A stretch of DNA of 64,000 bases from Chroococcidiopsis sp. CCMEE 29 (GTDB lineage Bacteria; Cyanobacteriota; Cyanobacteriia; Cyanobacteriales; Chroococcidiopsidaceae). The notes under the pieces are model-generated. The model had not been told where the DNA came from and searched no databases. It saw only the letters and a list, made by a program, of their open reading frames with translations. The stretch is taken from contig NZ_CP083761.1 of NCBI RefSeq assembly GCF_023558375.1, positions 2,908,001 to 2,972,000 of the forward strand, written 5' to 3'. Below are positions 7,837 through 45,402 of this stretch, in pieces; positions within the stretch are counted from its first letter, which is position 1; every line of letters begins with the position of its first letter. A program made the translations under genes and the position numbers.

Positions 7837-7902
7837 AACCTAGATAAGTAAGCTTGATGACGAACAAAAAGCCGCCTTTGATCGTCTAGGTAACTATTCT
7901 TG

Positions 7903-8070
7903 ATGACTGCTGCTAGCAGGACTGTAGCTGAAAACACTGCGTTACAAAACTTTGAGGAAATTTTACGAGCAGAATGTGTAGCTGAGATAGCACTATTAAC
8001 GATTGATTCCGGAAGGCGATTTGGATTTTTTGAAGCTATTAGTAGCGCATTAGCTGAAGGAGCATCATGA
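7903..8070 (+). CDS. Small protein of 55 residues coupled to the next gene
   Basis: ATG at 7903 opens a 55-codon frame ending in TGA 8068-8070. It overlaps the ATG of the following gene in an ATGA arrangement, the usual sign of translational coupling. The peptide is soluble and slightly acidic with a helical middle (NTALQNFEEILRAECVAEIA). I do not recognise the family. Support is the exact overlap and the absence of another gene in this gap; weak points are the lack of a clear ribosome-binding site and the short length. Confidence 0.45.
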   Translation: MTAASRTVAENTALQNFEEILRAECVAEIALLTIDSGRRFGFFEAISSALAEGAS

Positions 8071-8564
8071 GGAGTTTGGCAAACTTGACAACAGCATTGA
8101 GTGTATTACTGACTCTGCTTGTCTCGGCACCTACTCCTAGGCAGGCGCAGTTAGAAAAACCAATACTGCCCAAGACTCTACCCGATCTTGTGTTAAAAGT
8201 AGAACATCAATCGGGAACTTGTCCAAAGACGGTTGGGATTTGGACTGCGTTTCATTCCTATGAAGGTGGTGCAGAACATACTGTCATTGCCGATACGATA
8301 GCGTTTGCAGGTGACGCTCAATTGACATCTTCAGGTGAAAAGTTAGTTGAATACAGAGCACCTTTGAAAACAGCATACGCTTCCTGCATCGGTTGGGCTA
8401 GAGATGAGAATAACGGGCAAGATCTCTATCGGTTTTTGTTCCGGGAGGGCTATGTTTATTTTCGCGTAGAGCTACCGCCAGATACTCTTGCTAACCCTTC
8501 TATCTTTAGCAATGTCAGTTTTTTGGATGCGCATCCTTATGTACGCTGGGCGATCGCCGACTAA
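8067..8564 (+). CDS. Secreted hypothetical protein
   Basis: A 165-residue protein with a clear signal peptide (hydrophobic stretch LTTALSVLLTLLVSA, likely cut after RQAQ near residue 28). The mature part is beta-rich with two cysteines, one in SGTCPKTVG and one in ASCIGWARDE, that could form a disulfide. I do not recognise the family. The start overlaps the stop of the 55-residue gene upstream. A periplasmic or outer-surface location is predicted from the signal only. Confidence 0.7.
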   Translation: MRSLANLTTALSVLLTLLVSAPTPRQAQLEKPILPKTLPDLVLKVEHQSGTCPKTVGIWTAFHSYEGGAEHTVIADTIAFAGDAQLTSSGEKLVEYRAPLKTAYASCIGWARDENNGQDLYRFLFREGYVYFRVELPPDTLANPSIFSNVSFLDAHPYVRWAIAD

Positions 8565-8674
8565 TCCCTGCAACTTAAACTACAACCCGAGTACTTTAAT
8601 CCAACTCTTGAATAGAGCTGGTAGCCAGTGGGGATAACTAAGATGTTGTAGATCGTCTAAGTCCTAAAATATCT

Positions 8675-9496
8675 ATGGAAATTCTGTTGGCGTTACCAGG
8701 CTCTGTAATTGTCTTTGCCCTGGGAGCATCTGTTGGCAGTTTTATAAATGTTGTGGTTTACCGTTTGCCAGCTGGATTGTCAATTCTCTGGCCTCGTTCT
8801 CGCTGTCCCCATTGCTTACATCAGCTAGGTAACCGAGAAAATGTCCCTGTCTTAGGTTGGCTATGGTTACGGGGTCGGTGTCATCACTGCAACCATCCAA
8901 TTTCAATTCGTTATCCGGTAGTGGAAGCAGCAACTGGTCTACTGTTTTTGTTGATTTTCTGGAATTTTGAGGTATCAATTCAAACGCTTGGCTATTGGAC
9001 ATTTTGCAGCTGGTTATTAGCGCTGTCGCTGATCGATCTAGATACTATGACCCTGCCAAACCAACTAACTAAATCGGGATTAGTTACTGGTCTGACGTTT
9101 CAGCTAGTTTCAGGTTTTCTCCCACAGGCAAGCTGGATAGGAGCCGTTAACCAAATGATGTCTGGTATTATTGGAGCGGTACTAGGTTTATGGTTGTTTG
9201 ACTTAATCACTGTGGTGGGTTCAATTACCCTTGGACAAGCCGCCATGGGAGGGGGAGATGCTAAATTAACAGCAATGCTCGGCGCTTGGTTAGGTTGGAA
9301 ATATTTGTTACTGGCTGGGTTTCTTGCTTGTGCTGTAGGTGCGTTTGTCGGTGGTGGGGTGATCGCTTTAGGAATACTAAATCGGCGGCAACCGATGCCA
9401 TTTGGTCCCTTTCTCGCTCTAGGAGCGGTGATTACTCTGTTTATGGGTGAGACACTTTTATCCGCCTACATCCGGTTCGTATTTCCAGCCACTTAA
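8675..9496 (+). CDS. pilD: Prepilin peptidase (type IV leader peptidase, A24 family)
   Basis: A 273-residue membrane aspartyl protease that cuts and methylates type IV prepilin leaders. The N-terminal methylase-type domain has the zinc tetrad C44xxC47 and C69xxC72. Catalytic aspartates lie in LIDLDTMTLPNQL (near 121-123) and in GGGDAKLTAM (near 198). About eight membrane segments. Needed for pili and natural competence. A single gene here, with a DUF2007-type gene right behind it. Confidence 0.95.
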   Translation: MEILLALPGSVIVFALGASVGSFINVVVYRLPAGLSILWPRSRCPHCLHQLGNRENVPVLGWLWLRGRCHHCNHPISIRYPVVEAATGLLFLLIFWNFEVSIQTLGYWTFCSWLLALSLIDLDTMTLPNQLTKSGLVTGLTFQLVSGFLPQASWIGAVNQMMSGIIGAVLGLWLFDLITVVGSITLGQAAMGGGDAKLTAMLGAWLGWKYLLLAGFLACAVGAFVGGGVIALGILNRRQPMPFGPFLALGAVITLFMGETLLSAYIRFVFPAT

Positions 9497-9536
9497 ACGA
9501 AGTCAGCAGACAGCACGTTCTGCTAATATTAAGCAT

Positions 9537-9764
9537 GTGTCTTGGATTACATTAAAAACTACGAGTATTCGTTGGGAAGCAGAGCTGATGCAACAGATGC
9601 TGGCAGCTCACAATATACCAGTGCGAATCCTAGATTTGGGGATAGCTTGCTACTTCAGTAGTGGCAGTCCGGCTGCTTTACAAGTACACTCAGAAGACCA
9701 GTGGACAGCCTTGCTTCTATTAAGTCCAATCGAGGAGGAGCCAATCGACACCCAAGAGAATTGA
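9537..9764 (+). CDS. DUF2007-like small signalling-type protein
   Basis: A 75-residue protein from GTG 9537, reading MSWITLKTTSIRWEAELMQQ. The core (WEAELMQQMLAAHNIPVRIL, then a loop and ALQVHSEDQWTALLLL) fits the DUF2007 fold, a short beta-alpha-beta unit described as a putative signal-transducing domain. An upstream in-frame ATG at 9447 would overlap pilD by 50 bases and add 30 residues unlike the family, so I chose the later start although no good ribosome-binding site is seen. Function unknown. Confidence 0.65.
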   Translation: MSWITLKTTSIRWEAELMQQMLAAHNIPVRILDLGIACYFSSGSPAALQVHSEDQWTALLLLSPIEEEPIDTQEN

Positions 9765-9885
9765 ATTTATTTAAGTTTTTGGCTCAGCGGTAGCTAAAGA
9801 AGCTGAACGTGTTTACTAAAACTGAAAATGCTTGGGTTATAAGGCTGGCTTTTTTTGACCTCATACCCACTTAAATAAGATAAAG

Positions 9886-28573: not shown

Positions 28574-28606
28574 ATAGACCTTTGTGTGTCACCTGACGAC
28601 AAATTT

Positions 28607-29215
28607 ATGGAATCCCTCACCGAAGCTCAACAACAACTTTATGACTGGCTAGCAGAATATATTCAGCAGCACCAGCATTCGCCTTCAATTCGCCAAATGA
28701 TGCAAGCGATGCAACTGAAGTCGCCAGCACCAATTCAAAGTCGATTAGAACATTTACGCACTAAAGGATATATTGAGTGGACAGAAGGCAAAGCACGAAC
28801 GATTCGGATTTTACAACCACCAGTAAGGCAAGGTATCCCCGTTTTAGGCGCGATCGCTGCTGGTGGTTTAGTCGAACCGTTTGCTGATGCGGTGGAACAA
28901 TTAGATTTTTCTAGTCTGTTTTTACCACCCAAAACTTTTGCCCTGCGAGTAGTGGGTGACAGCATGATCGAAGACTTGATTGCTGAGGGGGATGTGGCGA
29001 TCATGCGTCCGGTGTCAGAACCAGATCAGCTGAAAAATGGGACGATTGTTGCTGCACGAGTAGATGGATACGGCACCACATTGAAGCGCTTTTATCGCCG
29101 AGGCGATCACGTCACACTCAAACCTGCAAATCCCAAGTACAAACCAATTGAAGTTGCTGCTATGCAAGTGCAGGTGCAAGGTGCACTCATTGGCGTGTGG
29201 CGGGGTTATAACTAG
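28607..29215 (+). CDS. lexA: LexA repressor
   Basis: A 202-residue repressor from ATG 28607 (a GTG at 28586 is also in frame). The N-terminal winged helix reads LTEAQQQLYDWLAEYIQQHQ to RTKGYIEWTE. The C-terminal self-cleaving domain keeps a scissile Ala85-Gly86 in GAIAAGGLVE, nucleophile Ser119 in VGDSMIED and general base Lys160 in TTLKRFYRR. It is therefore likely able to cleave itself, unlike the changed LexA of Synechocystis. A LexA box lies just upstream, and a second, perfect one is found at 55528-55541 in this window. Confidence 0.95.
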   Translation: MESLTEAQQQLYDWLAEYIQQHQHSPSIRQMMQAMQLKSPAPIQSRLEHLRTKGYIEWTEGKARTIRILQPPVRQGIPVLGAIAAGGLVEPFADAVEQLDFSSLFLPPKTFALRVVGDSMIEDLIAEGDVAIMRPVSEPDQLKNGTIVAARVDGYGTTLKRFYRRGDHVTLKPANPKYKPIEVAAMQVQVQGALIGVWRGYN

Positions 29216-29255: not shown

Positions 29256-30752
29256 ATGTATTTAACGCAGAGTCTAGTAAAGCGGCAATCAGGATTAAAA
29301 TCAAGATTTCAGAGCCAACTGAAATTACTAGTTGCTGGCGAAAGTAAAGGCAGTTATCAGCCTAATTCATTACCTAAGACTCTGCCACTACCGGGATGTC
29401 CCAGAATACCACCGCTTATCCAATTGCGGCAGTATCAGCAACAAGCAGTCGCTAGCTGGTTTGCCAATCGTGGTAGAGGTACGCTGAAAATGGCTACTGG
29501 TAGTGGCAAGACGATTACAGCACTGGCGATCGCCAGTGAACTCTATCAAAAAATCGGCTTGCAAGTCTTGCTGGTAGTCTGCCCTTATCGGCATCTCGTT
29601 ACTCAATGGGCGCGAGAATGCGAGAAATTTGGACTAGTGCCAATCCTGGCGTTTGAGAATGTACACAACTGGCAAAGTCAATTATCATCCGGGCTGTACA
29701 ACGTGCATTCTGGCAATCAGCCCTTTCTTACACTCATCACCACAAACTCTACCCTGATGGGAGAAGGCTTCCAATCTCAGTTGAAGTACTTCCCTGATAA
29801 AACCTTAATTGTGGGAGACGAGGCACATAACTTAGGCGCACCACGCTTGGAACAAAGTTTACCTCGGGCAATTGGGCTGCGTCTCGGCTTATCTGCAACG
29901 CCAGAACGATATTTTGATCGGGAAGGTACGCAATTTATCTTTGATTACTTTGGTTCCGTCTTGCAGCCAGAACTTACCCTAGCAGATGCTATTCGGCAGG
30001 GGGCGCTAGTTCACTACCTTTATTATCCGATTCTTGTGGACTTAACAGAGTCTGAAGCTTATGCCTACGCGCGGTTAACAACCAGGATTGGATGGGCACT
30101 TGCCTCTAAGGAAGATGGTGCTGATAGTGATGCTCTGACACCATTATTAATGCAGAGAGCCAGGTTAATCGGAGCAGCAGCCAACAAGGTAGAAGCTTTA
30201 CGGCAGTTAATGGTAAAGCGTTTAGATACTGATCGCACCTTGTTTTATTGTGGTGATGGTTCTGTAGAAGGGATAGTGAGTGCAGAAAGCACCAGGCAGC
30301 TGACAGCTGTGGTGAGAATGCTGGGTGCAGAATTAGGTTATCGAGTTAACACCTATACCGCAGACACACCCTTAGTACAACGAGAAAACTTGCGACGACA
30401 ATTTGAAACAGGCGAGTTGCAAGGTTTGGTAGCAATTCGGTGTTTAGATGAGGGGGTAGATATTCCCGCAATTGAGACTGCTGTGATTCTTGCCAGTAGC
30501 AGCAATCCGCGCCAGTTTGTGCAGCGTCGGGGGCGAATTTTGCGTCCCTATCCTGGTAAAGAACGCGCCACCTTATATGACATGATTGTCTTGCCTCCAG
30601 AATTAGACAGACAAACTTGGGAGGTAGAACGCAACTTACTACGAAAAGAGTTAAAGCGATTTGTAGAGTTTGCAGATTTAGCTGACAACGCTGGAGAAGC
30701 CAGAATCAAGTTACTGAATTTACAGAAAAGATATGGCTTGTTAGATATCTAA
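29256..30752 (+). CDS. DEAD/DEAH helicase, Dnd-associated restriction type
   Basis: A 498-residue superfamily 2 helicase. Motif I is ATGSGKT (80-86), motif II is GDEAHNL, motif III is GLSATPERYF and motif VI is QFVQRRGRILRP near residue 425. Similar stand-alone helicases are called DNA phosphorothioation system restriction enzymes (TIGR04095) because they travel with dnd genes. No nuclease domain is seen. It heads the accessory island and shares its core with the truncated helicase at 35341. A run of GAGTAGT repeats precedes the start. Restriction activity is inference from context. Confidence 0.75.
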   Translation: MYLTQSLVKRQSGLKSRFQSQLKLLVAGESKGSYQPNSLPKTLPLPGCPRIPPLIQLRQYQQQAVASWFANRGRGTLKMATGSGKTITALAIASELYQKIGLQVLLVVCPYRHLVTQWARECEKFGLVPILAFENVHNWQSQLSSGLYNVHSGNQPFLTLITTNSTLMGEGFQSQLKYFPDKTLIVGDEAHNLGAPRLEQSLPRAIGLRLGLSATPERYFDREGTQFIFDYFGSVLQPELTLADAIRQGALVHYLYYPILVDLTESEAYAYARLTTRIGWALASKEDGADSDALTPLLMQRARLIGAAANKVEALRQLMVKRLDTDRTLFYCGDGSVEGIVSAESTRQLTAVVRMLGAELGYRVNTYTADTPLVQRENLRRQFETGELQGLVAIRCLDEGVDIPAIETAVILASSSNPRQFVQRRGRILRPYPGKERATLYDMIVLPPELDRQTWEVERNLLRKELKRFVEFADLADNAGEARIKLLNLQKRYGLLDI

Positions 30753-31125
30753 GGATAAAGATTAGGCAGCTACAGGTATACACTGATTAACCCTTATCTG
30801 TGTTTATCTCTGTGCATTAGTGGTTGTTACTCTCTCGGTTATTCCTCACTGGAGTTTGTAAAATAAAAAATCTTAACGGTGTAACTAACCTATTTTTCTA
30901 TTTAATGATATTATTTTATAATAGGGGTATTTCTACTCAATAATAAACGCCAATATTTCTATTATTAAGTAAACTTTATTCAATATTGCAATCATATCAC
31001 TAAGCAGACAAAAACAAAAGTTTTTTTGAAATTGTTTTAATCCTAAATATCTAAGAACCAGGGGGCAATCGAGGGGAAAGTTTTCCTGGCAAGACAGCTA
31101 TAGCCTAAGTAGCCATGCGGTCATG
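30753..31125. other. AT-rich spacer between helicase and dndD-like genes
   Basis: About 370 bases, very rich in A and T from 30840 to 31050, with no supportable gene and no visible remnant of dndC, which commonly precedes dndD. Confidence 0.5.
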
Positions 31126-31152
31126 TAGATGTATAAAATATAGCTACATCTA
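31126..31152. promoter_or_regulatory. Inverted repeat overlapping a promoter-like sequence
   Basis: TAGATGTA (31126-31133) and TACATCTA (31145-31152) form an 8-base inverted repeat around TAAAATATAGC, 12 bases before the start of the small gene. It looks like an operator over a -10 element. Confidence 0.5.
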
Positions 31153-31164
31153 TTTGTTAACGCT

Positions 31165-31338
31165 ATGACTAATGAATCGAGTATGAATGAGGTGCAGGAG
31201 CCAATTAGCACTGCTCCGGCGGAAGTCCGACAAATTATTGAGCGGGTATGGCAGGTAGAAAAAGGCAGATTGGACAAGAAAAGTCTAAGTCATATTAATG
31301 ACGATATCTTGAAAATAGTGAAGGAAGTTGTGCAATGA
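31165..31338 (+). CDS. Small protein coupled to dndD-like gene
   Basis: A 57-residue soluble protein, MTNESSMNEVQEPISTAP then a helical part VRQIIERVWQVEKGRLDKKSL and HINDDILKIVKEVVQ. Its stop overlaps the next start in an ATGA arrangement (31335-31338). Short proteins at this place are known in Dnd-type DNA modification loci; I recognise the type and not a named function. It may be a partner or regulator of the ATPase. No ribosome-binding site is obvious. Confidence 0.7.
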   Translation: MTNESSMNEVQEPISTAPAEVRQIIERVWQVEKGRLDKKSLSHINDDILKIVKEVVQ

Positions 31339-33404
31339 AGCTGACTTCCATCAAACTTTGCAACTTTCGTCAGTTTTATGGCAAGACACCAGAGATTTTG
31401 CTGGCGTGGGGAAACGAGTGTAACACTACAGTAATTCACGGCAATAACGGAGCGGGAAAAACCGGGTTGCTAAATGCCTTTACTTGGGTATTGTATGAGA
31501 AATTTAGTGCTGCTTTTGCTTCAGTTGAGCAGCTGGTAAATAAGCGAGCGATCGCCGAAGCTCAACTCGGAGATGCGATTGAATGCTGGGTAGAAGTTGG
31601 TTGGGAGCATGACGGTAAACGCTACCTTGCTAAGCGGATGTGCCGTGTCTATAAGAATGAAACTGACTTTGACGCTGGTAAGAGTGAATTGTATATGCAG
31701 GTAGCTGGGGATGATGGACGTTGGTATCTACCACCACAGCAACCGGATGAAATCATTAATCAAATTTTACCAAGTAGTTTACATCAATATTTCTTCTTTG
31801 ATGGAGAGCGGATTGAGCAGATTGTCCGCTCTGATAAAAAAGCTGAAATTGCCGAAGCTACCAAAATGCTGCTGGGTGTGGAGGTGTTAAATCGTTCCAT
31901 CAGACATCTGGGGGAAGCGAAGAAAACTCTGGAAAACGAGTTAAAAGCAATTGGTGGTTCGGAAACTAAACAGTTATTAAAAAAGCAGGAAAAAATTAAT
32001 CAGGAGAGCGAGCGAATAATTAATCGTCAGAGTGAAATCAATCAAGAATTGGAATATCAACAAACGCTAAAAAAAGAAACTAGCAATCGCTTAAGAGAAC
32101 TCAGCGCTGCCAAAGTATTGCAAGAAAGACAGCAGGAGCTAGAGAGATTGAAAAAGTTAAACCAAGATAATTTAAAACAAAGTAAGGAAGCACTGAAACG
32201 AGCAATTTCAGCTAGAGGGTATACGGTATTCTTGTCAGAGACGACAACTCAGTTCCGTTCAATCGTGAATGATTTAAGGCAGCGAGGTGAATTAACTGCT
32301 GGAATTTCCCGAGAATTTGTCAATGAGTTACTGATTCAGCAATGCTGCATTTGTGGTGCCGAACTGCATGAGGGTAGTTCTACCTGTGAAAGCGTGAGAA
32401 GCTGGTTAGATAGAGCGGGTTCTTCGGCTGTGGAGGAAACGGCTATCCGTATGAGTGCTCAAGTTGATGAAATTGATAAGCAAGCAGCAGCATTTTGGGA
32501 AGAAATTGACACAGAGCAAACGAGGGTTACTCAGTTAAGGCAAGTTATTAACCAAATTGAAACTGAGTTAGATAGTATTCAAGAACGATTGAGAGCAGAT
32601 CCGAGTGAAGAAATTCGGAACCTGCAAAAGCGGCTAGATGAAATTGAAGCAAAAATTCGAGAGTTGACACTAGAACAGGGAGCCAATCAGCAGCAAATTG
32701 CTAATCTAAATGCTGAAATTGAAACCTTGGGTAAACAAATTGCTAAGCAAAAAATGAATGAGGAGAAGCAAGCACTTGCTCAACGACGGATTGTAGCAAC
32801 CCAAGATGCAATTGAGCGGTTAATTGAAGTGAGATATCGCCAAGAGCGACAGTTTCGCTTGCAGTTGGAAAAGAGAGTAAAAGAAATATTTCGGGAAATT
32901 TCATTTACGCCTTATCTACCTAGAATTAGTGAAAAGTATGAGTTAACACTAGTAGAAAATACGGCAGGTTTAGAGGCACCTGTTGCAGCTTCCACTGGAG
33001 AGAATCAAATTCTCAGCTTATCCTTTATTGCTAGCATCATTGACAGGGTAAGGGAATGGAGTGAAAGAAAAATGCTGATGGTTCCAGATAGCAGCACGTT
33101 CCCGATTGTAATGGATTCGCCATTTGGAAGTTTGGATGAAATTTATCGGCGGCAAATTGCGAAGACGATTCCTAAATTAGCTAATCAGTTAGTGGTTTTA
33201 GTTACTAAGACGCAGTGGCGTGGTGAAGTTGCAGCAGAAATGGCAGACAGAATTGGCAGAGAATATGTACTTACTTATTATTCTTCTAAACCAGATTGCG
33301 AACAAGATGCAATTGAGTTAGGTGGTACACGCTATCCTTTAGTCAAGCAAAGCCCCAACGAGTTTGAATACACCGAAATTATCGAGGTGGAACGTTATAG
33401 TTAG
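31335..33404 (+). CDS. dndD: DndD-like SMC/Rad50-type ATPase
   Basis: A 689-residue ABC-type ATPase. The N-terminal half reads FRQFYGKTPEI with Walker A GNNGAGKTG (36-44) and the DndD-typical YFFFDGERIEQI. Long coiled coils (about 190-330 and 370-500) flank a CxxC hook (Cys337, Cys340). The C-terminal half has signature STGENQILSLSF and Walker B VMDSPFGSLDE (Asp594). DndD is the ATPase of phosphorothioate DNA modification complexes. Here the sulfur-transfer partner DndC and DndA, DndB and DndE are not nearby, so the role may differ. Coupled to the small gene upstream. Confidence 0.82.
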   Translation: MKLTSIKLCNFRQFYGKTPEILLAWGNECNTTVIHGNNGAGKTGLLNAFTWVLYEKFSAAFASVEQLVNKRAIAEAQLGDAIECWVEVGWEHDGKRYLAKRMCRVYKNETDFDAGKSELYMQVAGDDGRWYLPPQQPDEIINQILPSSLHQYFFFDGERIEQIVRSDKKAEIAEATKMLLGVEVLNRSIRHLGEAKKTLENELKAIGGSETKQLLKKQEKINQESERIINRQSEINQELEYQQTLKKETSNRLRELSAAKVLQERQQELERLKKLNQDNLKQSKEALKRAISARGYTVFLSETTTQFRSIVNDLRQRGELTAGISREFVNELLIQQCCICGAELHEGSSTCESVRSWLDRAGSSAVEETAIRMSAQVDEIDKQAAAFWEEIDTEQTRVTQLRQVINQIETELDSIQERLRADPSEEIRNLQKRLDEIEAKIRELTLEQGANQQQIANLNAEIETLGKQIAKQKMNEEKQALAQRRIVATQDAIERLIEVRYRQERQFRLQLEKRVKEIFREISFTPYLPRISEKYELTLVENTAGLEAPVAASTGENQILSLSFIASIIDRVREWSERKMLMVPDSSTFPIVMDSPFGSLDEIYRRQIAKTIPKLANQLVVLVTKTQWRGEVAAEMADRIGREYVLTYYSSKPDCEQDAIELGGTRYPLVKQSPNEFEYTEIIEVERYS

Positions 33405-33502
33405 CAGAAGTCTTGGCGACTGTAAGTCGCAGCTACACAGACAAAACTTGCCTACGTAGGTTTCAAAAACCCTAAATTTCCGTAATTAATATCAGGTTTT
33501 TT

Positions 33503-34054
33503 ATGAGTATAGAAACTAAAGCAACTCTTGAAGATTTGTACCGCGTACCTGAAAATGGCAAAGCGGAGATTGTGAACGGAGAACTGGTGTTGATGTCTCC
33601 AACTGGTTTTCTGCCAGGACGTGCAGGGGGTGAAATATATGTAAGTCTGCGCGAGTATGAACGCCGCACTAAGAGCGGGTATGCTTTGCCTGATAATGTT
33701 GGTTTTATAGTTAATTTACCGAACCGTCGATCTTTCAGCCCTGATGCCGCATTCTACACGGGTAAACCTACAGGTGGTAAGTTTCTGAAAGGAGCGCCTG
33801 TTTTTGCTACTGAAGTGAGAAGTGAAAATGACTACGGTGATGCAGCAGAGGAAGCTATGGCAACCAAACGTCGAGATTACTTTGCTGCTGGTACTTTGGT
33901 GGTATGGGATGTAGACGTACTCAAAGAGGAAGTTGTCAGGGTGTATCGTGCCAGTAATCCTGAACAGCCGCAAGTCTATCATCGTGGTGAGGTAGCTGAA
34001 GCTGAACCCGCTGTGCCGGGGTGGGTAATGGCAGTGGAGGCTCTTTTTGTTTAG
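33503..34054 (+). CDS. Uma2-family (DUF820) nuclease-fold protein
   Basis: A 183-residue protein of the PD-(D/E)XK fold that is strongly expanded in cyanobacteria. Visible core: FSPDAAFY (Asp), FATEVRSEND (Glu) and AMATKRRDYFAAGT with the lysine near KRRDYF. The start reads TLEDLYRVPENGKAEIVNGE. Nuclease activity for the family is predicted. It sits inside the Dnd-like island with a second, distinct family member next; such genes are scattered widely, so this may be a coincidence. Confidence 0.88.
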   Translation: MSIETKATLEDLYRVPENGKAEIVNGELVLMSPTGFLPGRAGGEIYVSLREYERRTKSGYALPDNVGFIVNLPNRRSFSPDAAFYTGKPTGGKFLKGAPVFATEVRSENDYGDAAEEAMATKRRDYFAAGTLVVWDVDVLKEEVVRVYRASNPEQPQVYHRGEVAEAEPAVPGWVMAVEALFV

Positions 34055-34122
34055 GTGTGGAGCGATCGCTTACTCCATAGGAGAATTTGAAGCAATTAAA
34101 TTTTAAACAAAGGCATTGGATC

Positions 34123-34692
34123 ATGATTGCCAATCCAGAACGAAATTATATAGCTCCCCAGGAATACCTGGAATGGGAAGAACACCAAGAAATTAAACAC
34201 GAGTACGTCAACGGCGAAGTCTTTGCGATGACTGGGGGTACCATTCCCCATAACGATATTGCCCTAAACCTGGCGACTGGGTTAAAAAATCACCTCCGGG
34301 GGAGTCGCTGTCGTGTCAATATGGCAGATGTAAAAGTATGCGTGTCTGAGGATGGATCATTTCACTACCCGGATGTCGTTGTAAGTTGCGATGAAAGCGA
34401 TCGCCAAGCTATTAAATTCATCCGATATCCTTGTCTAATTGTCGAAGTCCTCTCCCCCAGTACAGAAGCTTACGATCGCGGTGGAAAATTTACTCAGTAC
34501 CGCCGCATCCAGACTTTAAGAGAATATGTCCTTATTGATGCGGAAAAGATTAGTATAGAGTGCTTCCGACTAAATGACAGAGGTTTTTGGGAATTACATC
34601 CTTACGAACAGGGGAATGAAGTGCATTTAACCAGTGTTGATTTCCGCTTTCCCATCTCTTTGGTTTATGAAGACGTGCAGTTGTCAATGTAG
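34123..34692 (+). CDS. Uma2-family (DUF820) nuclease-fold protein, second
   Basis: A 189-residue Uma2 protein from ATG 34123 ([20 protein letters not shown]); an in-frame TTG at 34087 is less likely. Core motifs are [28 protein letters not shown] (Asp), [17 protein letters not shown] (Glu) and [18 protein letters not shown]. It belongs to a different subgroup from the one before it, so it is not a tandem duplicate. Predicted PD-(D/E)XK nuclease; target unknown. Confidence 0.9.
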
Positions 34693-34830
34693 GCGATCGC
34701 TGTTTACAGAGGACGCACACACAAGGCAGTGCGATCGCGCTTGTTGACGAAGCCTTAAAACGCAGTTATACAGGAATGATGGGGAAGGCGATCGCTTAGT
34801 TAAGATTTTAATAAACTTGATATTAAGAAA

Positions 34831-35301
34831 ATGGCAGAAACTGGCAGAATTAGAGTTGCTAAAGATAAAGCAGATTTGGTGAAGGCTTTAACATCAGCAG
34901 ATGGTGCAACAGGTCCTTTCCAAACTTATGCCGATGTAATTGTATTTGCTGCTGCTTTGGGAGCAAAACATAAAAAGCGAGTGCCTTTAGGGGAAATATC
35001 TAAAAGAGAACCGTCACCGATTCCCCAAGAACAATTTATTGTCAGGGGGTATGACATGGTAATAAATTTACTGTCAAGTGCTGAAACAAAGGATATAAAA
35101 GTTTTATTTTTTAATGAGGAAAGTAACGCTGATAAACGCAACCATATTTTTGAAGAATATGCTAATGGAGGAATTGAATTGTTACAAGTAGAATTACGTG
35201 GAGCAGTAGATTATACAGAAAGGATTTTATTAATTATTAGCGCTGAAAGAGTGAATCAAGAGCAAATAGAAGACTTTGATTTAAGCAGATTCCTGTCTTA
35301 G
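34831..35301 (+). CDS. Dnd system-associated protein 4-like
   Basis: A 156-residue soluble protein. The pattern RIRVAKDKADLVKAL, FQTYADVIVFAAALGAKHKKR and YDMVINLLSSAETKDIKVLF, then ERILLIISAE, is what I associate with dnd system-associated protein 4, a family found beside phosphorothioation genes and of unknown function. It stands between the Uma2 genes and a PLD-helicase gene starting 39 bases later, so the two are likely cotranscribed. Confidence 0.7.
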   Translation: MAETGRIRVAKDKADLVKALTSADGATGPFQTYADVIVFAAALGAKHKKRVPLGEISKREPSPIPQEQFIVRGYDMVINLLSSAETKDIKVLFFNEESNADKRNHIFEEYANGGIELLQVELRGAVDYTERILLIISAERVNQEQIEDFDLSRFLS

Positions 35302-35340
35302 TTGCCTTATTGATATTGGTGACGTTTAGGGAGTACTAGG

Positions 35341-37080
35341 TTGAGTTTGAAAGGCTTGGAAATTCAGGATGAATACCGGAGTGATCGCTGTAATCTGCTC
35401 CAGGATTTCTACCTACCATGCTTGCAAAAATCAACGGTATACAGTCGAGCAGTAGGATTTTTTTCTAGTACTTCGATGGCAGCTGCTGCTAGAGGGTTGA
35501 CAGCCCTGATTCGAGTTGGTGGGAAGATGAGGCTAGTTGCTTCTCCTTTTTTGTCTCAAGAAGATGCAGAGGCGATCGCTACAGGACTGCGGCAGCGGGA
35601 GGAAATTATTACTGGTGCCATTCTGCAAGAGTTAGTTCAAGAATTTGAGCAAATCGTTAAAGATCGGTTGGCTTGTTTAGCGTGGTTGTTGGAGCAGAGA
35701 GTTTTAGAAATCAAGCTAGCGGTGGCTAAAAACATCCATCAACACGCCATTTATCACGAAAAGTTGGGCATATTTACTGACGCTATGGATAATATTGTTG
35801 CTTTCACAGGTTCTGCTAATGAGAGTTCTTCTGCTCTGATTGACAACTTTGAATGTATTGATGTCTTCTGCTCTTGGAAACTGAGTGAACGAGAAAGAGC
35901 ATTGCGAAAGGCTGAAAACTTCCAGCGGCTTTGGGATAACGGTACAGCCAAGGTGGAGGTGATGGGGTTTCCAGAAGCGGCGGCGCGATCGCTGCTAAGA
36001 CTACGCCCTGATAAACCACCTGAACAAGAACCTGAAATAAAAAGGGCTAAAAAATATTGGGGACTGGCTGAGCAAAGTGGAAGTTATCGTACTAATAGGG
36101 ATGAAATTAGCCAATCAGAACCTGAAACTCTAAGCCTTCCTACATTCCAGAATTTTCTTAAAGTCGAGTTAAGACCTCGCCAAGTTGATGCACTCAACAC
36201 TTGGGAATCTGCTAATCGCCAAGGCATTTTGGCTATGGCAACTGGCGCAGGTAAAACTATTACAGGATTGGCTTGTGCAGCCAGTGTCAAAGACCTTGAT
36301 TTCATTGTGATTGGCGCACCAACAAATGAGATTGTGCAGCAATGGGTTGATGAACTTGCACATCGAACAACATTCCGAACCCCATTGATTGCCACAGGAG
36401 GTGCAGAACTATGGATGGAACCACTTTTCAGGAAACTACGCTTGATACACAGTGGACAATTACCGCGCGAACGACTTCCAGTTGTTGTCGTAGGCAGCTA
36501 CAGCGAACTTTCAAAATCCCGCATAGATAATCTCATTGATGACGCAGGAGGTCTTCCACAGCATTCTTTATTAATTGCTGATGAAGTTCATGCAACTGGT
36601 GCTGCTGTCTTTCGACGAATATTGCGAAATGACTTCCAATTTCGCCTTGGTCTTTCTGCAACACCTGTTCGTCTTTACGATGAAGAAGGTACTGAATTAG
36701 TACTGGAGTATTTCGGCGGTGTTGTTTATGAATTCACTCTAGAACAGGCGATCGCAGCAGGTATTCTCTGCGAGTATGAGTACCACGTATATGTCACCCA
36801 ACTGACAGCAAGTGAATACGTAAGATTCCAAAATCTGACCACAAAAATTGCTCGTTTGTACAACAGTGACGAAGAAGATGCGATCGCACAAGCGAAGCTT
36901 TTATCTATCCAGCGTGCCAATCTTATCAAATCTGCCGCCTCAAAGCTTGCAGTTCTCAATCACATTCTTTCCGATCATCCTCCACGCAGAGGAATGATCT
37001 ACTGTGCTGACATAACACAGGCTACAAGAGTAAGCGGTCTGAGCAACCTTCACTTGCTCGTGGTAGCGCCGAATTTCTGA
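35341..37080 (+). pseudogene. PLD-helicase truncated in the second helicase domain
   Basis: A 579-codon frame from TTG 35341. Residues ~30-190 are a phospholipase-D-like part (HEKLGIFTD and GSANESSSAL). Residues ~270 on form a superfamily 2 helicase with MATGAGKT, IADEVHATG and GLSATPVRLY, closely parallel to the helicase at 29256. After RGMIYCADITQAT the match ends; motifs V and VI (such as QRRGR) are missing and the tail GLSNLHLLVVAPNF is the antisense of a different gene. The helicase therefore lost its C-terminal third in a rearrangement near 37020 and should be inactive. PLD plus helicase proteins are typical of restriction and Dnd loci. Confidence 0.85.
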
Positions 37081-37251
37081 ACGCCAAATCTCTCCAGGTG
37101 GAAGCTTGAGCCAAAGTGTGGCTGAAATTTGTTGCTCAACTAGTAAGTCAATCAGAGACTCAACGAGTGATAGAAGAGTGACTGGACTGACCGACAAGAG
37201 TTGGGGATGCCGCTCTATACTGAGGGCAAGTTTATAAAGGGAGACATCCAT
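37029..37251 (-). pseudogene. N-terminal fragment of an unknown protein cut at the same junction
   Basis: From ATG 37251 (minus strand) about 74 codons look like real protein: MDVSLYKLALSIERHPQLLS, then LLSLVESLIDLLVEQQISAT and LWLKLPPGEIWRSEIRRYHE. After QTAY the frame runs antisense into the helicase and stops at 36940. So two genes facing each other are both cut at about 37020-37040. I do not recognise the family; the helical start followed by a strand and Trp/Tyr-rich segment is reminiscent of cyanobacterial sensory input domains. Confidence 0.5.
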
Positions 37252-37322: not shown

Positions 37323-38816
37323 TTACACTGTTCTTTGCATTAAGGCTTCTCGTGCCTGTTCTCGGTCATCAAAGTGGATTTTTTCGGTTCCCAGAATTTG
37401 GTAATTTTCGTGACCTTTACCGGCAATCAGCACCCCATCACCCGGTTGAGCTTGTTGAATAGCGGTATGAATTGCAGTAGCGCGATCGCTAATCACCACT
37501 GGCTCAACTGTCTTTGGTATGCCCACTAGAATATCTTGCAAAATCCGTTCTGGGTCTTCTGTGCGGGGGTTATCAGAGGTCACGAAGACGACATCAGCTA
37601 ACTGGGCGGCAATTTGACCCATTTTGGGGCGCTTTGTACGATCGCGATCGCCACCACAACCAAATACACAAATCATTTTTCCTGGAATAAAAGGTCGCGC
37701 CGCCTGAAGTAAATTCTCCAAACTATCCGGCGTATGAGCATAATCCACAATTACACTGATATCTTGCTCAGAACCCAACTGCACCCGTTCCATTCGTCCT
37801 GGCACCCCCGGAAACTGTGGCAGCAGATCGGCAATTAACTGTAAATCAATTCCCAAATGTAAAACGGCTCCCACTGCTGCTAGCAGATTAGCTAAGTTGT
37901 ACTGACCGACTAAGGGCGATCGGAAGGCAACCTCACCCTCAGGTGTATGCAGCATTCCACTGACTCCGGTTGGTTCATAACTAAGGTTACTCATCCATAA
38001 ATCAGCGGCAGTCGCATCGGTAACACTATACCGCCATAGTTGCTCTGGTTTTAACCGTGCAATTAACCTTTGCCCGTAAGGATCGTCAGCATTAATCACC
38101 GCTCGTCCTCGCAGATAGTCAGGGCTAAACAGCATGGCTTTGGCTGCAAAGTAATCTTCCATATCGCGGTGAAAGTCCAAATGATCCTGAGTTAAATTAG
38201 TAAACACCGCCACCTCAAACGGACAGTTCATTACGCGTCCCTGCGCCAATGCATGAGAGCTGACTTCCATTACCGCTAACTCACATCCAGCTTTAACTGC
38301 TGCCGCCAGTTGTGCTTGTAGTTCCACGGCAAAAGGTGTGGTGTGAACAGCTGTTTGCTCAAAGCCTGCCCAACGTGTATAAAGTGTTCCCATTAAGGCT
38401 GTGGAGCGTTGGGCTTGGGTGAGGAAAAATTCAATTAGATGGGTAGTTGTGGTTTTGCCATTCGTGCCTGTAACACCAACTAGTTTTAACTGTTGTGCTG
38501 GATAGCCATAAAAGGCGGCTGCCACCTGAGCACAAGCTTGAATCATGTTTGTAGCTGTAATAAGGCAAGGATTCCCTTCTCCCCCTGCTTTCTTCTGAGC
38601 AGCTTGAGGGGAAATGAGGGCAGCGACAGCGCCGGAAGCGATCGCACTCTGCCAAAACTCTCCACCATCCACCCGCGTTCCCGGCATGCCAATAAATAAA
38701 TCTCCTGGTTGGCAGGCATGAGAATTAGTCGTCAAACCTTTCACCTCTGCATCCAAGGCTGAATGATTAGGCAATTGCAAGCCACTCTCGACTGCCAATA
38801 GTTCACGCAACTTCAT
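37323..38816 (-). CDS. murE: UDP-N-acetylmuramoyl-tripeptide synthetase MurE
   Basis: A 497-residue peptidoglycan ligase adding the third amino acid to UDP-MurNAc-L-Ala-D-Glu. ATP-binding motif GVTGTNGKTTTTHLIEFF, the carbamylated-lysine region, and DYAHTPDSLENLL are present. The substrate motif DNPR occurs in TSDNPRTEDP, which marks specificity for meso-diaminopimelate. Complete. It lies downstream of the glutaredoxin-like gene on the same strand, 30 bases apart. Confidence 0.96.
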   Translation of the reverse strand: MKLRELLAVESGLQLPNHSALDAEVKGLTTNSHACQPGDLFIGMPGTRVDGGEFWQSAIASGAVAALISPQAAQKKAGGEGNPCLITATNMIQACAQVAAAFYGYPAQQLKLVGVTGTNGKTTTTHLIEFFLTQAQRSTALMGTLYTRWAGFEQTAVHTTPFAVELQAQLAAAVKAGCELAVMEVSSHALAQGRVMNCPFEVAVFTNLTQDHLDFHRDMEDYFAAKAMLFSPDYLRGRAVINADDPYGQRLIARLKPEQLWRYSVTDATAADLWMSNLSYEPTGVSGMLHTPEGEVAFRSPLVGQYNLANLLAAVGAVLHLGIDLQLIADLLPQFPGVPGRMERVQLGSEQDISVIVDYAHTPDSLENLLQAARPFIPGKMICVFGCGGDRDRTKRPKMGQIAAQLADVVFVTSDNPRTEDPERILQDILVGIPKTVEPVVISDRATAIHTAIQQAQPGDGVLIAGKGHENYQILGTEKIHFDDREQAREALMQRTV

Positions 38817-39394: not shown

Positions 39395-40120
39395 ATGACT
39401 TATTCAACCGAAGCTCAAAGCCAAACTGCAAATTTTAACTTGGAGGAACTAAACCAGAGATTTGATACTGCCCATCCGAGAGAAATTCTAGCCTGGTGTG
39501 TTAAGCATATTCCAAACGGATTGGTGCAAACCAGTGCCTTTAACGTCGATGACATAGTAATCACCGATATTCTCTATCGCGACCTCAAGCGGTCAGTCCC
39601 AGTAGTCTTTCTCGATACACTGCATCATTTTCCCCAAACTCTAGAGCTAGTAGCCAAAGCCAAGGATTTATACAACCTAAATTTGAAAGTTTACAAAATT
39701 CTAGACATTGATTCCCGTGAAGCCTTTGCTGCTAAATACGGTGAAGCACTTTGGGATACAGACATTACCCAATTCCACCACCTCACCAAAATTGAACCTT
39801 TACAAAGGAGTCTAGCAGAACTGAATACCATTGCCTGGATCACCGGACGTCGCCGAGACCAAGCTAACACCCGCGCTGACATGCCAGTATTTGAACTAGA
39901 TGGCAAACAGCGCCTTAAAGTCAATCCCTTAGCTAGCTGGACACGCAAAGAATCCTGGGCATATGTATTTGAGCACGACGTTATCTACAATCCCTTACAT
40001 GACCAAGGTTATCCCAGCATCGGTGATGAACCAATCACTACACCAGTAGCCGAAGGCGAAGATGAAAGAGCTGGTCGCTGGCGCGGTACAGGCAAAACTG
40101 AATGTGGCATCCACATCTAG
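39395..40120 (+). CDS. cysH: Phosphoadenylyl-sulfate reductase
   Basis: A 241-residue enzyme reducing activated sulfate to sulfite with thioredoxin. Visible: QTSAFNVDD region, VFLDTLHHFPQT, the binding motif AWITGRRRDQANTRADMPVFE and the single C-terminal catalytic cysteine in KTECGIHI. The four extra cysteines of the iron-sulfur APS reductases are absent, so PAPS is the expected substrate. This is assimilatory sulfur metabolism and not the missing DndC. CCCCTAA repeats follow it. Confidence 0.93.
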   Translation: MTYSTEAQSQTANFNLEELNQRFDTAHPREILAWCVKHIPNGLVQTSAFNVDDIVITDILYRDLKRSVPVVFLDTLHHFPQTLELVAKAKDLYNLNLKVYKILDIDSREAFAAKYGEALWDTDITQFHHLTKIEPLQRSLAELNTIAWITGRRRDQANTRADMPVFELDGKQRLKVNPLASWTRKESWAYVFEHDVIYNPLHDQGYPSIGDEPITTPVAEGEDERAGRWRGTGKTECGIHI

Positions 40121-41767: not shown

Positions 41768-42322
41768 CTATTTTGGAAACAGCTTATCTGATGATATTTG
41801 GTCAGAAAACCCGAATTTCAACAACATCTGACGAGCTTCTTCCACACTTAAGTCTTGCTTAATCAATGTCTGCCCCGCTACATCTGCCAGACTTTGCAAC
41901 TCATCTAGTGACAGCTTTTCTGCTCTCGTACTGCCTAACTTTACTACCAGCAAGATTAAGAAACGACGCAATGCCTCTCTTTGAGCACCTGTTAGCTCGA
42001 TCTCGTCAGCACAAAGGGAGACAGCCTCTGTCAGCCCTTCTCTAGTAGTTGCCTCTTTATTAGCACTTGGGCGCGTCGCTAAGCCACTAATAAATGCACC
42101 CAATACCAAACCTACCCATAGCCCTGTTGTGCTGCCTTGCCAGATTGCTCTTGGTGCAACCCAGGCGTTGCAACCTGCTTTCAATCCCCAAGGCTGGGCT
42201 TGGCAGCTATGGCTATGAGTTTTCAGGCTAATTTGCCCACCAATGTAAGCACTAGAAACCCCCGATACTAGCGCCACAAAGGTACAAATCAGAATCCGTT
42301 TTTGTTGCAGCAATTTGCCCAT
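41768..42322 (-). CDS. Hypothetical membrane protein behind ppc
   Basis: A 184-residue protein with two hydrophobic segments (near residues 11-28 and 66-82) and a soluble C-terminal part. That part has two short helical units, TGAQREALRRFLILLVVKLG and SVEEARQMLLKFG. The ATG at 42322 overlaps the stop of ppc by one base (TGATG), so the two genes are coupled. I do not recognise the family; a link to PEP carboxylase is only suggested by position. Confidence 0.7.
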   Translation of the reverse strand: MGKLLQQKRILICTFVALVSGVSSAYIGGQISLKTHSHSCQAQPWGLKAGCNAWVAPRAIWQGSTTGLWVGLVLGAFISGLATRPSANKEATTREGLTEAVSLCADEIELTGAQREALRRFLILLVVKLGSTRAEKLSLDELQSLADVAGQTLIKQDLSVEEARQMLLKFGFSDQISSDKLFPK

Positions 42323-45300
42323 CAACCGGTATTTCTCATTCCAGCAGCAATCCCGTTGATAGTTAATAATGCCCCTCTGAGCAATTCACCCTTACTATGA
42401 CGAGAATCGATCACGCCAGAAACTGCGGGAGTCCCGCACTGTCGCAACCTTTTCAGCAAGGAAACTTGCAAAAATCCTAAGGGGACAATTGTACCGTTGC
42501 GCAACTGTACAGACCGCTGAAGTACAGGATCTCCATCCAGCAGTTTTTTATGCCCAGCGATCGTTAATACTAAATTACGGGTCAAATAGTACTCGTTAGC
42601 AATCTGCTCAAACAAACGTTCAAAACGGGCTTTATCCTCGGCTCGCGATAGCTCCTGTACGTAGTGGTGCGCCATCTGGATGTCTACCTTTGCCAAAGTC
42701 ATCTCTGCCTTGGAAACCGCCATCTTAAAGAAGGGCCACTTTAAATAAAAGTAGCGCAGCAACTTCAAGTGTTCCTCCGGCTCTTCGTTGACAAACTCTT
42801 GTAAAGCGGTACCAACCCCATACCAGGAAGGCAATAGAAAACGACTTTGCGTCCAGCTGAATACCCAGGGGATTGCTCGCAGACTGCTTAAATCTTTCTT
42901 GCCACTCTGACGACGGGCGGGACGAGAACTGATCTGTAACTGGCTAATTTCATCAATGGGTGTGACCTGATGGAAGAAATCAATAAAATCAGGCTGTTCG
43001 TAGATCAAGGCACGATAGTGTTGCCTTGAGCGTGCTGCCAGTTCTTCCATGATCTCGTTCCAGGATTGGATGTCATCAAACCCAGTCCGCAGTAGGCTAG
43101 CTTGAATAACAGCGGTAGTAATAGTTTCTAGGTTGTAAAGAGCTAACTCTGGCAACGAGTACTTGGATGCTAAGACTTCTCCCTGTTCAGTAATCTTGAT
43201 TCTGCCGTTGATGCTGTGCCCAGGCTGAGCCAAAATTGCCTCATAAGCAGGACCACCACCACGACCCACAGATCCACCACGACCGTGAAAAATCCGCAGA
43301 TTTACTGCATACTGTTCGGCTATTTGCTGAAGTGCTTTTTGGGCTTTGTGGATTTCCCAGTTGCTACTCAAGAAACCAGAATCTTTGTTGCTGTCAGAGT
43401 AGCCTAGCATCACCTCTTGTAAGTTAGGGGTGAGGGATGGACGGGGGCATGAGGGCAGAACCTCTTCAGCTTCTGTATTCCTCTCTTGGTAGCCTCCGGC
43501 AAGGAGGGCGCGGTAAAGGGGTAGTTCAAACAGCTTTTGCATCACGCTCGGAGCGCGTAGCAAATCCTCCACGGTTTCAAATAGAGGGACAACTTGGATA
43601 GTGGCAATGCCGGTTGCTGGGTCGTATAATCCGGCTTCTTTCGCTAACAGCAACACTTCCAGTAGATCGCTCAGTTCGCGGCTCATGCTGATGATGTAAG
43701 TCTGACAGATATTGCATCCAAATTCTTGCTGGAGCGATCGCACAACCCGGAAGGTTTCAATTAACTCATTCGTTTTCTCAGAAAAAGGTAGTTCCGCTGG
43801 AATTAACGGGCGACGGGTTTGTAGTTCCTTAGTTAGCCAACTGACTCGTTCTGCTTCTGATAGTTCGTGGTAGGATTGGGGCAAAATTTGCAGGTATTGC
43901 AGAATTTCATTCAACACATCGGCATGGCGGGATGATTCTTGCCGGATGTCAAGGTGAGCTAGGTTAAAGTCATAAATTTCTACCTGACAGATTAGGTTTT
44001 CTAGTTCCCGACAGCTTAAGCCGGTTTCAGCCAGGTTGCTCTGAATCATTCGCAACTCTGCTAAAAACTCTGAACCTGACTTATAGATTGCTGTGGTGTT
44101 GCTTTCTAGGTTTTTCTGTTGTCGCAGGTTGCTGTTGTAGAGGCGAGCATTGCGATCGCGTGTATTTTCCAGCCGTTTGAGCACATAAGATAGCTTCAGC
44201 CGATACGGCTCTTGGCGGTAACGCAGTGCTAGTGCTTCGTAAACTTCGCTTAGTTGGGACTGGTCCTGCTCCAAAGATTCCAGCAGGTCTGGCAATACAT
44301 CACTCCAGTGCAAAGAGACACTTAAAAGATCGATCAACCGTCTTACAGACTGGGTATACTTTTCCAACACCATTTGGCGCTGATAGCAGGCTGTTTGCCA
44401 CGTGACTTGAGGTGTCACAGAGGGGTTGCCATCTCGGTCTGACCCTACCCAGGAACCAAACTTACAAAAGTTATTGCTGGGTGGCCTTAACCGCGGGAAG
44501 GAAGTAGACAGGGCGTGTTTAAACCTGTGATACAGTTGCGGAATCCGCTCAAATAGGACTTCGTTAAAGTAGTGGAGGGCATATTCTACCTCATCTAGCA
44601 CTTCTGGCTTAAACTGATGCAGTTCGTCTGTGCGCCACCAAAGGCGAATTTCCTCAGTTAATTGTTCCTGCAAGGCTGCCACTTCCCACTGGTTTGCACC
44701 GTTGAAGCTGCCTTGTCCTTCCTCCAATTGATCCAGTTGTTGCAGGATCTTCGCCATCCGTCGCTGCTTGTCCCGGATAGTAGAACGCACAATTTCTGTC
44801 GGGTGAGCCGTGAAGACTAACCGCACATCCAGCTGGTCAATCAATCGCTGAATTTGCTGGGGTGGTACATTCATCTGGCGCAGATGCGGAAACAAGGCGT
44901 GTAATGTACCCTGCGTTTGCCGCTCTGTGTGTGTGGCTTGCCAAGTTTTCTCTAGCAGTTCTGCCCCAGGACCAGCGCTAATAAGTTGTCCCTTCTGCTC
45001 TACTTGGGATGGCTGGATTGATTCTGGATTTATTTTTTTTTGCCCTAATTTCTTGTGCTGTAAAGAGCGATCCAGTTGTTCGCGCTGTTCGTAGTGCTGC
45101 TCAACAATATTAATCAGTTGGAAATAGAGGGCAAAGGCACGAGCCGCCCGAATTGCTTCGTTCAGTTCGAGCTGTGAAATCAACTTGACGACTTCCGACA
45201 CTTGACCGTTAGTTGCCTGCCCCTCTGGGGAACACATATCGCGCAGTTTTGCCAAGAGATTGACTAATGCTTGACCGCACTCTTGCCGAATAACAGACTC

Positions 45301-45402
45301 CCACAAGTCCTCCACTACTTGGAGGCGTTGGCGCAGGAACAGATCAAACGGAGAGGGGCTGACAGTTAATGCCTCATCGGACGAGTGGAGGAGCGAACTC
45401 AT
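42322..45402 (-). CDS. ppc: Phosphoenolpyruvate carboxylase
   Basis: A 1026-residue enzyme fixing bicarbonate on PEP to give oxaloacetate. Signatures are [14 protein letters not shown] with the catalytic histidine, [22 protein letters not shown], the glycine-rich [19 protein letters not shown], and the C-terminal [10 protein letters not shown]. Length matches cyanobacterial enzymes. It supplies C4 acids alongside the malic enzyme gene at 49258. Complete. Confidence 0.98.

What the first reader, a model, noticed from the sequence alone, without database searches (positions are those of the whole stretch)
29256..37080. Dnd-like island without visible modification genes
Seen: helicase (TIGR04095-like), a 57-residue protein coupled to a DndD-like ATPase with CxxC hook, two Uma2 proteins, a dnd-associated protein 4 and a PLD-helicase. 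DndA, DndB, DndC and DndE are not in the window, and cysH at 39395 is an ordinary PAPS reductase. Known: DndD works with DndC and DndE in phosphorothioation, and restriction helicases need the mark to spare self DNA. Inferred: either the mark is made by genes elsewhere, the locus is decaying, or DndD with its small partner and helicase forms a modification-independent defence system.
Basis: partly seen in the sequence, partly recalled or inferred. Interest (0 to 1): 0.8.

Follow-up and report, generated by a model that had tools for sequence, protein, structure and literature searches.

The report
Stranded Pbe defence genes, modification partner lost
A cyanobacterium carries the attack half of a known antiviral system that normally works with a sulfur tag on DNA; the tag-making genes are missing from its genome apart from a fossil, while most of the attack genes are still intact, which makes it a natural test of whether they can work without the tag.

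Summary
The genes are real, but labels change. The locus is a PbeABCD ("CxC ABC-ATPase") system, not a Dnd modification operon missing pieces. The "DndD-like" ATPase is PbeC (CxC hook), the 57-residue protein is PbeB, and "dnd-associated protein 4" is PbeD, whose predicted fold resembles DndE. The 29256 helicase is PbeA-like without the nuclease domain. The PLD-helicase is a second PbeA, cut off near 37,030 where it meets a broken histidine-kinase gene.

In the window's order Pbe and DndC go together (of 341 genomes: 299 both, 7 PbeD only, 7 DndC only, 28 neither). This genome (2 contigs, 99.99% complete) has no match to DndC or DndB and no true DndD. It keeps a dndE 3' fragment and a frameshifted dnd-associated methyltransferase gene 2.35 Mb away, so mark-writing genes were probably lost. 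The helicase, PbeB, PbeC and PbeD have no internal stops and no clear acceleration, so the core still looks constrained.

Solitary pbe loci are already described (Xiong 2019; Rakesh 2024), so this is a member of a known kind. A split Dnd system is excluded for the assembled genome; decay holds for the dnd part and the second PbeA. Whether the orphan core still acts without phosphorothioate is open.

The parts
29256..30752 (+). PbeA-like SF2 helicase without PLD nuclease domain (TIGR04095), 40 bases after lexA
   Evidence: same place after argF-lexA in relatives G005, G006, G010 (broken), G011 and in 8 of 24 PbeC loci of named genomes
31165..31338 (+). PbeB, 57 aa small protein, overlaps the pbeC start by 4 bases
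   Evidence: 55-72% identical in 20 relatives; upstream of PbeC in 24 of 24 loci
31335..33404 (+). PbeC, CxC-hook ABC ATPase (DndD-related), Walker A, signature and Walker B intact
   Evidence: PDLC02753, 1175 bits; invariant columns
33503..34054 (+). Uma2-family putative nuclease (copy a), passenger or accessory
   Evidence: PF05685
34087..34692 (+). Uma2-family putative nuclease (copy b), lies between PbeC and PbeD in many relatives
   Evidence: PF05685; 16 of 24 PbeC loci, plus one fragment after PbeC
34831..35301 (+). PbeD (dnd_assoc_4), DndE-like predicted fold
   Evidence: TIGR04062
35341..37080 (+). second PbeA (PLD domain plus helicase), truncated: lacks the last part of the helicase (motifs V and VI, names recalled)
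37020..37045 (.). junction joining the cut PbeA to the cut gene X (approximate)
37023..37251 (-). N-terminal remnant (about 76 aa) of gene X, a DICT-domain histidine kinase of 471 aa in G001, beside murE

Best explanation
This is the effector half (PbeA-like helicase, PbeB, PbeC, PbeD, plus Uma2 neighbours) of a Dnd-Pbe island. In the ancestor it most likely worked with DndC-DndD-DndE, which write phosphorothioate marks. Rearrangement and deletion removed the mark-writing genes: the island now ends in a cut second PbeA joined to the stub of an unrelated gene, and only a dndE 3' fragment and a frameshifted dnd-associated methyltransferase gene survive 2.35 Mb away. Shown here: identity of the genes, absence of the writers from the assembled genome, the fossil, the junction, and lack of visible decay in the core. 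Inferred from published work: PbeC (Rad50-related ATPase) with PbeD (DndE-like, probably DNA-binding) scans or loops DNA, PbeB regulates, and the helicase translocates, together stalling replication of unmarked viral DNA. Inferred: without phosphorothioate the module is harmless to its host and probably gives no PT-based protection now.
For: Family assignment. DndE-like fold of PbeD: (three DndE entries at Z 8.9-9.9, next row Z 2.7). Writers absent. Island in a relative, argF-lexA-helicase-PbeB-PbeC-PbeD-dndC-dndD-dndE: (L067); similar order in named genomes. Co-occurrence of PbeD and DndC in 341 genomes: 299 both, 7 and 7 single, 28 neither (Fisher p 4e-28). Fossil. Junction. Lack of decay in the core. 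No toxicity or protection without PT: PMC6459918.
Against: A replicon missing from the assembly could still carry dndCDE; 2 contigs and 99.99% completeness do not exclude it. That fossil and island were once one unit is inferred from relatives (L060, L075), and the DNA around the fossil shares nothing else with four relatives' dnd regions. The dndE fragment is only about 52 codons, so the age of the loss is rough. The helicase is not strictly tied to Pbe: five of 100 genomes have it over cut-off without PbeD (G007, G016, G017, G044, G085; only G007 is over 90% complete), and in G001 it lies 1.5 Mb from PbeC. Intact core genes fit badly with 'idle'. No expression or chemistry data.
Confidence: 0.8

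Rival explanations
1. The Pbe core keeps a function that needs no phosphorothioate, either alone (sensing a replication or DNA feature) or with another self-mark such as base methylation.
For: 0 stops in 1400 codons and no clear excess of private or lineage-specific substitutions, while the dndE fragment departs at 5 of 31 columns invariant in 11 other copies; a neutral clock set by that fragment predicts about 13 stops, about 5 at the lower 95% bound. Xiong 2019 found 320 of 553 pbeAC without dndCD within 10 kb, 155 of these near candidate base-modifying genes.
Against: Near-obligate pairing with DndC in this order. No DNA methyltransferase family among the Pfam matches of 9 proteins scanned between 20 and 47 kb of the window (argF, lexA, murE and cysH were not in that scan). 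In Natrinema, pbeABCD without PT gave no protection.
Confidence: 0.25
2. The whole locus is passively decaying and the core is intact only because the loss is recent.
For: Second PbeA cut, island junction, fossil dndE and frameshifted methyltransferase gene. Other members of the family show decay or loss: G010 with broken helicase, PbeB and PbeC, G007 without PbeD and DndC.
Against: The core shows neither stops nor clear acceleration; at the lower 95% bound of the fossil's divergence (about 0.025 per site) simulated runs without a stop are about 1-2% (2% at 0.02, 1% at 0.03).
Confidence: 0.3
3. The mark is still made, by dnd genes on a replicon missing from the assembly, so this is an ordinary split Dnd-Pbe system.
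For: Unlinked arrangements exist: of 74 genomes with both genes over cut-off, 13 have them on one contig more than 15 kb apart and 22 on different contigs.
Against: 0 DndC in a 2-contig, 99.99% complete genome. In this family 12 of 13 genomes with both genes have them within 15 kb, and the fossil points to loss.
Confidence: 0.1

Closest known systems
PbeABCD of Haloterrigena jeotgali (Xiong et al. 2019, PMC6459918)
   Same: Small protein PbeB (57 here, 66 aa there), coiled-coil ATPase PbeC, PbeD (156 here, 152 aa there), helicase PbeA.
   Different: The complete PbeA-like helicase here lacks the PLD domain and a second, PLD-bearing PbeA is truncated; no dndCDE found in the genome; two Uma2 genes between PbeC and PbeD.
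CxC ABC-ATPase/DndE-anchored systems (Rakesh, Aravind, Krishnan 2024, PMC10853773)
   Same: CxC hook at the coiled-coil tip, DndE-type partner, small protein, SF2 helicase; occurrence independent of the DndD-centred system is already reported there.
   Different: They report an HKD nuclease fused to the helicase in the vast majority; in these cyanobacteria the common helicase is too short to hold one.
Dnd modification system DndBCDE
   Same: PbeC is related to DndD (156 bits, under the DndD cut-off) and PbeD resembles DndE in predicted fold.
   Different: No DndC, no DndB, no true DndD.
Solitary pbeAC loci (Xiong et al. 2019, 320 of 553)
   Same: Pbe genes without dndCD nearby.
   Different: Here the absence is checked across the whole assembled genome, and a fossil of lost dnd genes is found.

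Membership tests
PbeABCD | PbeC-type CxC ABC ATPase | tested here: met
   PADLOC PbeC 1175 bits; invariant CIC hook, Walker A, signature, Walker B in 16 sequences
PbeABCD | PbeB small protein before PbeC | tested here: met
   57 aa, conserved in 21 aligned sequences; upstream of PbeC in 24 of 24 loci (within about 15 bases or overlapping in 23, 1.6 kb away in L089). No library model matches convincingly, so the name rests on place and size
PbeABCD | PbeD of about 150 aa, DndE-like | tested here: met
   TIGR04062 over cut-off and size. DndE-likeness: DndE structures top the fold comparison, Z 8.9-9.9 against 2.7 for the next row, but Foldseek E is only 0.15, the tool warns that helical folds can reach such Z by chance, and a sequence-profile comparison with DndE found nothing
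PbeABCD | PbeA with PLD nuclease plus complete SF2 helicase in one protein | tested here: not met
   29256 helicase is complete but has no PLD match; 35341 has the PLD part but lacks the helicase C-terminal part. Filed as a variant with divided and damaged PbeA, not as a canonical PbeABCD
PbeABCD | antiviral action dependent on phosphorothioate | not testable with these tools
   needs phage assay and PT chemistry
Dnd phosphorothioation system | DndC PP-loop enzyme | tested here: not met
   no match in own genome; PF01507 gives only two CysH
Dnd phosphorothioation system | DndD over cut-off | tested here: not met
   own genome: only PbeC, 155 bits against cut-off 245.85 (36 of 42 first-look candidates scored)
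Dnd phosphorothioation system | DndE | tested here: not met
   3' fragment of about 52 codons with in-frame stops upstream
DndFGH restriction | DndF, DndG, DndH | not tested
   not searched
SspABCD | SspD-like PP-loop enzyme | tested here: inconclusive
   PF01507 search of own genome lists only two CysH copies; no Ssp model was run, and that SspD would match PF01507 is recalled

The most novel reading that the evidence does not exclude
After losing the phosphorothioate writers, this lineage kept a nuclease-free PbeA-PbeB-PbeC-PbeD complex under selection as a stand-alone, modification-independent DNA-scanning defence or genome-maintenance machine built on a Rad50-like ATPase and a DndE-like DNA binder.
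Probability: 0.22. Interest if true: 0.75.

Novelty: new member of a known kind. Interest (0 to 1): 0.42.

Why it matters
How Pbe acts is disputed: Xiong et al. report a block of viral replication without DNA cleavage, while Rakesh et al. argue for cleavage by the PLD (HKD) nuclease. This genome, with a nuclease-free helicase, an intact PbeB-C-D core, a damaged second PbeA and no phosphorothioate writers, is a natural test of the need for the mark and for the nuclease. The survey also shows that in this cyanobacterial order PbeD accompanies DndC in 299 of 306 DndC-positive genomes, which bears on the published statement that phosphorothioate restriction systems are absent in cyanobacteria (PMC8569181, passages only).

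Tried and rejected
Rejected: "ordinary split Dnd system" (no dndC in the assembled genome). Rejected: the CxxC hook label; the conserved motif is CxC. Rejected: the rest of gene X lying elsewhere in the genome; the best other match is 40% identical, in the kinase part shared by many proteins (75 matches). For the rest of the second PbeA, one search counts 11 own-genome matches and its list, cut at E about 3e-26, shows 2 of them, so a weak remnant is not excluded.

Led nowhere: profile comparison of PbeD with DndE by sequence; PDB sequence search with PbeD (0 matches up to E 10); library matches for PbeB (weak, unrelated names); comparison of the flanks of the fossil locus with dnd regions of four relatives (only the methyltransferase gene is shared). 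A first comparison of the dndE fossil used 49 codons, part of which is probably not homologous; it was redone on the 52-codon end and a 41-codon core.

Results against or beside my reading. Relative-rate tests for PbeC are not uniform: with the Nostocales-type loci L082 and L083 as sisters the window lineage has more changes with outgroups L098, L100 and L101 (L083/L100 p 0.07, the other five p 0.014 or less) and fewer with L068; those three outgroups are themselves Nostocales (from their record titles), so they are poor outgroups. In the private-change count the window's PbeC (4) is above the median (1) though far from the maximum (9). Of PbeD's five AlphaFold models only two exceed mean pLDDT 79; the others are 61-64. 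The dndE fossil's mean of 14.3 differences lies within the range of working pairs (2-15, mean 7.6) over 52 codons; over the 41-codon core it is 8-13 against a mean of 3.0 and a maximum of 8. In one search, 26 of 100 genomes have some match to the PLD part; 6 of them reach 61% identity, the other 20 are at 40% or less.

Not done: DndA and DndFGH were not searched; no other PbeD-positive, DndC-negative genome (G036, G079, G110, G207, G210, G293; G066 and G082) was examined for an intact PbeC; expression and chemistry are out of reach. The counts 299/7/7/28 come from comparing the two printed lists by eye; each call left 15 genomes without a match unlisted, and the totals agree with the tallies (306 in each). 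DndC positives there include 6 below the curated cut-off, PbeD positives 1. Reading G210 as the one below cut-off rests on its E-value (3.6e-11); its row of bits was not printed.
Full report
What is there. The window is from a cyanobacterium (photosynthetic reaction-centre gene at 46184 and PEP carboxylase at 42322-45402). Between lexA (28586-29215) and murE (37323-38816) lie seven genes on the + strand: a helicase, a 57-aa protein, a coiled-coil ATPase, two Uma2 proteins, dnd_assoc_4 and a PLD-helicase.

What the genes are. PADLOC models identify the ATPase as PbeC (1175 bits; best DndD model 154 bits) and both helicases as PbeA-like. The conserved hook is CxC (C338 and C340 invariant in 16 sequences), the mark of the CxC ABC-ATPase clade that Rakesh et al. 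equate with PbeC (PMC10853773; passages, one section). The 57-aa protein has no convincing library match but is conserved (55-72% identity in 20 relatives) and lies upstream of PbeC in 24 of 24 loci (overlapping or within about 15 bases in 23, 1.6 kb away in L089); by place and size it is PbeB (66 aa in Haloterrigena, PMC6459918). dnd_assoc_4 is PbeD (152 aa there). An AlphaFold model of PbeD (mean pLDDT 82) has DndE entries as its best structural matches: Z 9.9, 9.9 and 8.9, next row 2.7. Foldseek also ranks DndE first, with E 0.15 only, and a sequence-profile comparison finds nothing. The fold result agrees with the statement of Rakesh et al. that PbeD is a DndE cognate. So the locus has its own DndD-like and DndE-like pair; what is missing is the modification enzyme set.

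State of PbeA. The helicase at 29256 is complete but has no PLD domain. This is the common form here: 81 of 100 genomes have a TIGR04095 helicase over cut-off, with open frames of 451-551 aa among those listed, too short for an added PLD domain. It is not strictly tied to Pbe: five of the 100 have it without PbeD, four of them incomplete genomes, and in G001 it lies 1.5 Mb from PbeC. A PLD-helicase at least 61% identical to the window's over the PLD part is in 6 of 100, the window's own genome included. The window's PLD-helicase ends before the last conserved part of the helicase. Right there, on the other strand, ends a stub of about 76 residues of gene X, which is a 471-aa DICT-domain histidine kinase in G001. 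In G001, G002, G007, G010 and G012 gene X has an open frame of 474-507 aa and lies beside murE; in this genome only the stub was found. Position 37,020-37,045 is thus a junction at which two genes were cut.

Are the modification genes elsewhere? In this genome (6.39 Mb, 2 contigs, 99.99% complete) DndC has 0 matches, DndB 0, and DndD only the window's PbeC. The PAPS-reductase superfamily has two members, both CysH. DndE has one weak match at C1:5296667-5296816: about the last 52 codons of dndE with stops upstream, followed by dnd_rel_methyl (TIGR04096), which changes frame near residue 418. In G001 and G010 dndE and this methyltransferase gene are adjacent and follow dndC-dndD (dndC a 3' fragment and dndD broken in G010). 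This looks like a fossil of a dnd operon.

How usual is that? In 341 genomes of the order (at least 95% complete) PbeD and DndC occur together in 299, PbeD alone in 7, DndC alone in 7, neither in 28 (compared by eye; Fisher p 4e-28). Of the seven PbeD-only genomes this is the only one with a strong PbeD match in an assembly of 10 contigs or fewer; G210 (1 contig) has only a weak one. In the 100-genome sample 74 have both over cut-off: 39 within 15 kb (median 4.7 kb), 13 farther apart on the same contig, 22 on different contigs. In the window's family 12 of 13 are within 15 kb. Relative G011 shows the island argF-lexA-helicase-PbeB-PbeC-(105-aa ORF, Uma2 fragment)-PbeD-(two genes)-dndC-dndD-dndE. 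G010 (73% complete) shows remains of the same island with broken helicase, PbeB, PbeC and dndD and no PbeD match. Of 24 PbeC loci fetched from named genomes, 21 have PbeD and 18 have dndC in the fetched stretch (some contigs end early).

Is the core decaying? Helicase, PbeB, PbeC and PbeD hold 0 stops in 1400 codons. Private changes at otherwise invariant columns are ordinary: helicase 4 (median 2, maximum 11), PbeC 4 (median 1, maximum 9), PbeD 1 (median 0, maximum 2), PbeB 0, against 6 for argF. Relative-rate tests against the closest relatives show no excess (PbeC against G001: 26-41 window-specific, 36-52 sister-specific changes over six outgroups); with Nostocales-type sisters L082 and L083 results go both ways. 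The dndE fragment departs at 5 of 31 columns invariant in 11 other copies (95% interval 5-34%); simulations at the matching neutral divergence (about 0.07 per site) give about 13 stops in the core, about 5 at the lower bound (about 0.025), none observed. The inference that the core stayed under selection after the dnd loss depends on a short fossil and on it coming from the same island.

How it most likely works. From the literature: PbeABCD with dndCDEA reduced plaque formation about 10^4-fold by blocking viral DNA replication without visible cleavage; without PT it neither protected nor showed notable toxicity (PMC6459918, parts 1-4 of 7 read). By analogy with Rad50/SMC-type ATPases (PbeC matches solved Rad50 structures), PbeC-PbeD may scan and loop DNA while the helicase translocates. 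Here the self-mark is gone, so the PT-dependent barrier is most likely silent; why the core is still intact is open.

Novelty. Solitary pbeAC loci (320 of 553) were reported in 2019 and independent CxC systems in 2024. What I add is a whole-genome check, a fossil of lost writers, and evidence that the core is not decaying. Searches listed no paper on this particular case by title or abstract; only PMC6459918, PMC10853773 and PMC8569181 were opened, each in part.

Noticed in passing
341 genomes of the window's order: PbeD is found in 299 of 306 DndC-positive genomes. PMC8569181 (passages only; 0 occurrences of 'pbe') states that phosphorothioate restriction systems are absent in cyanobacteria, apparently counting DndFGH only.
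   Followed up: partly
window 29256-30752: The common cyanobacterial PbeA-like helicase has no room for the PLD nuclease domain (81 of 100 genomes carry it), which bears on whether Pbe cleaves DNA.
   Followed up: partly
window 34087-34692; loci: A Uma2 protein lies between PbeC and PbeD in 16 of 24 PbeC loci (plus one fragment after PbeC in L083), suggesting an accessory role rather than a passenger.
   Followed up: no
L065 (G007:C6) 8075-9767: Another family member has no DndC, DndD or PbeD match but keeps a dndE 3' fragment next to an intact dnd_rel_methyl gene, so that methyltransferase may have its own role.
   Followed up: partly
L067:8333-10066 and 7356-8321: Between PbeD and dndC of G011 lie a protein with DGQHR/DpdB matches under their cut-offs and a 321-aa protein with a weak IscB match (22 bits, cut-off 175).
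   Followed up: no
L075 (G010:C46): argF-lexA-Pbe-Dnd island in which helicase, PbeB, PbeC and DndD are broken, DndC is a 3' fragment and PbeD has no match: an example of whole-island decay in an incomplete (73%) genome.
   Followed up: partly
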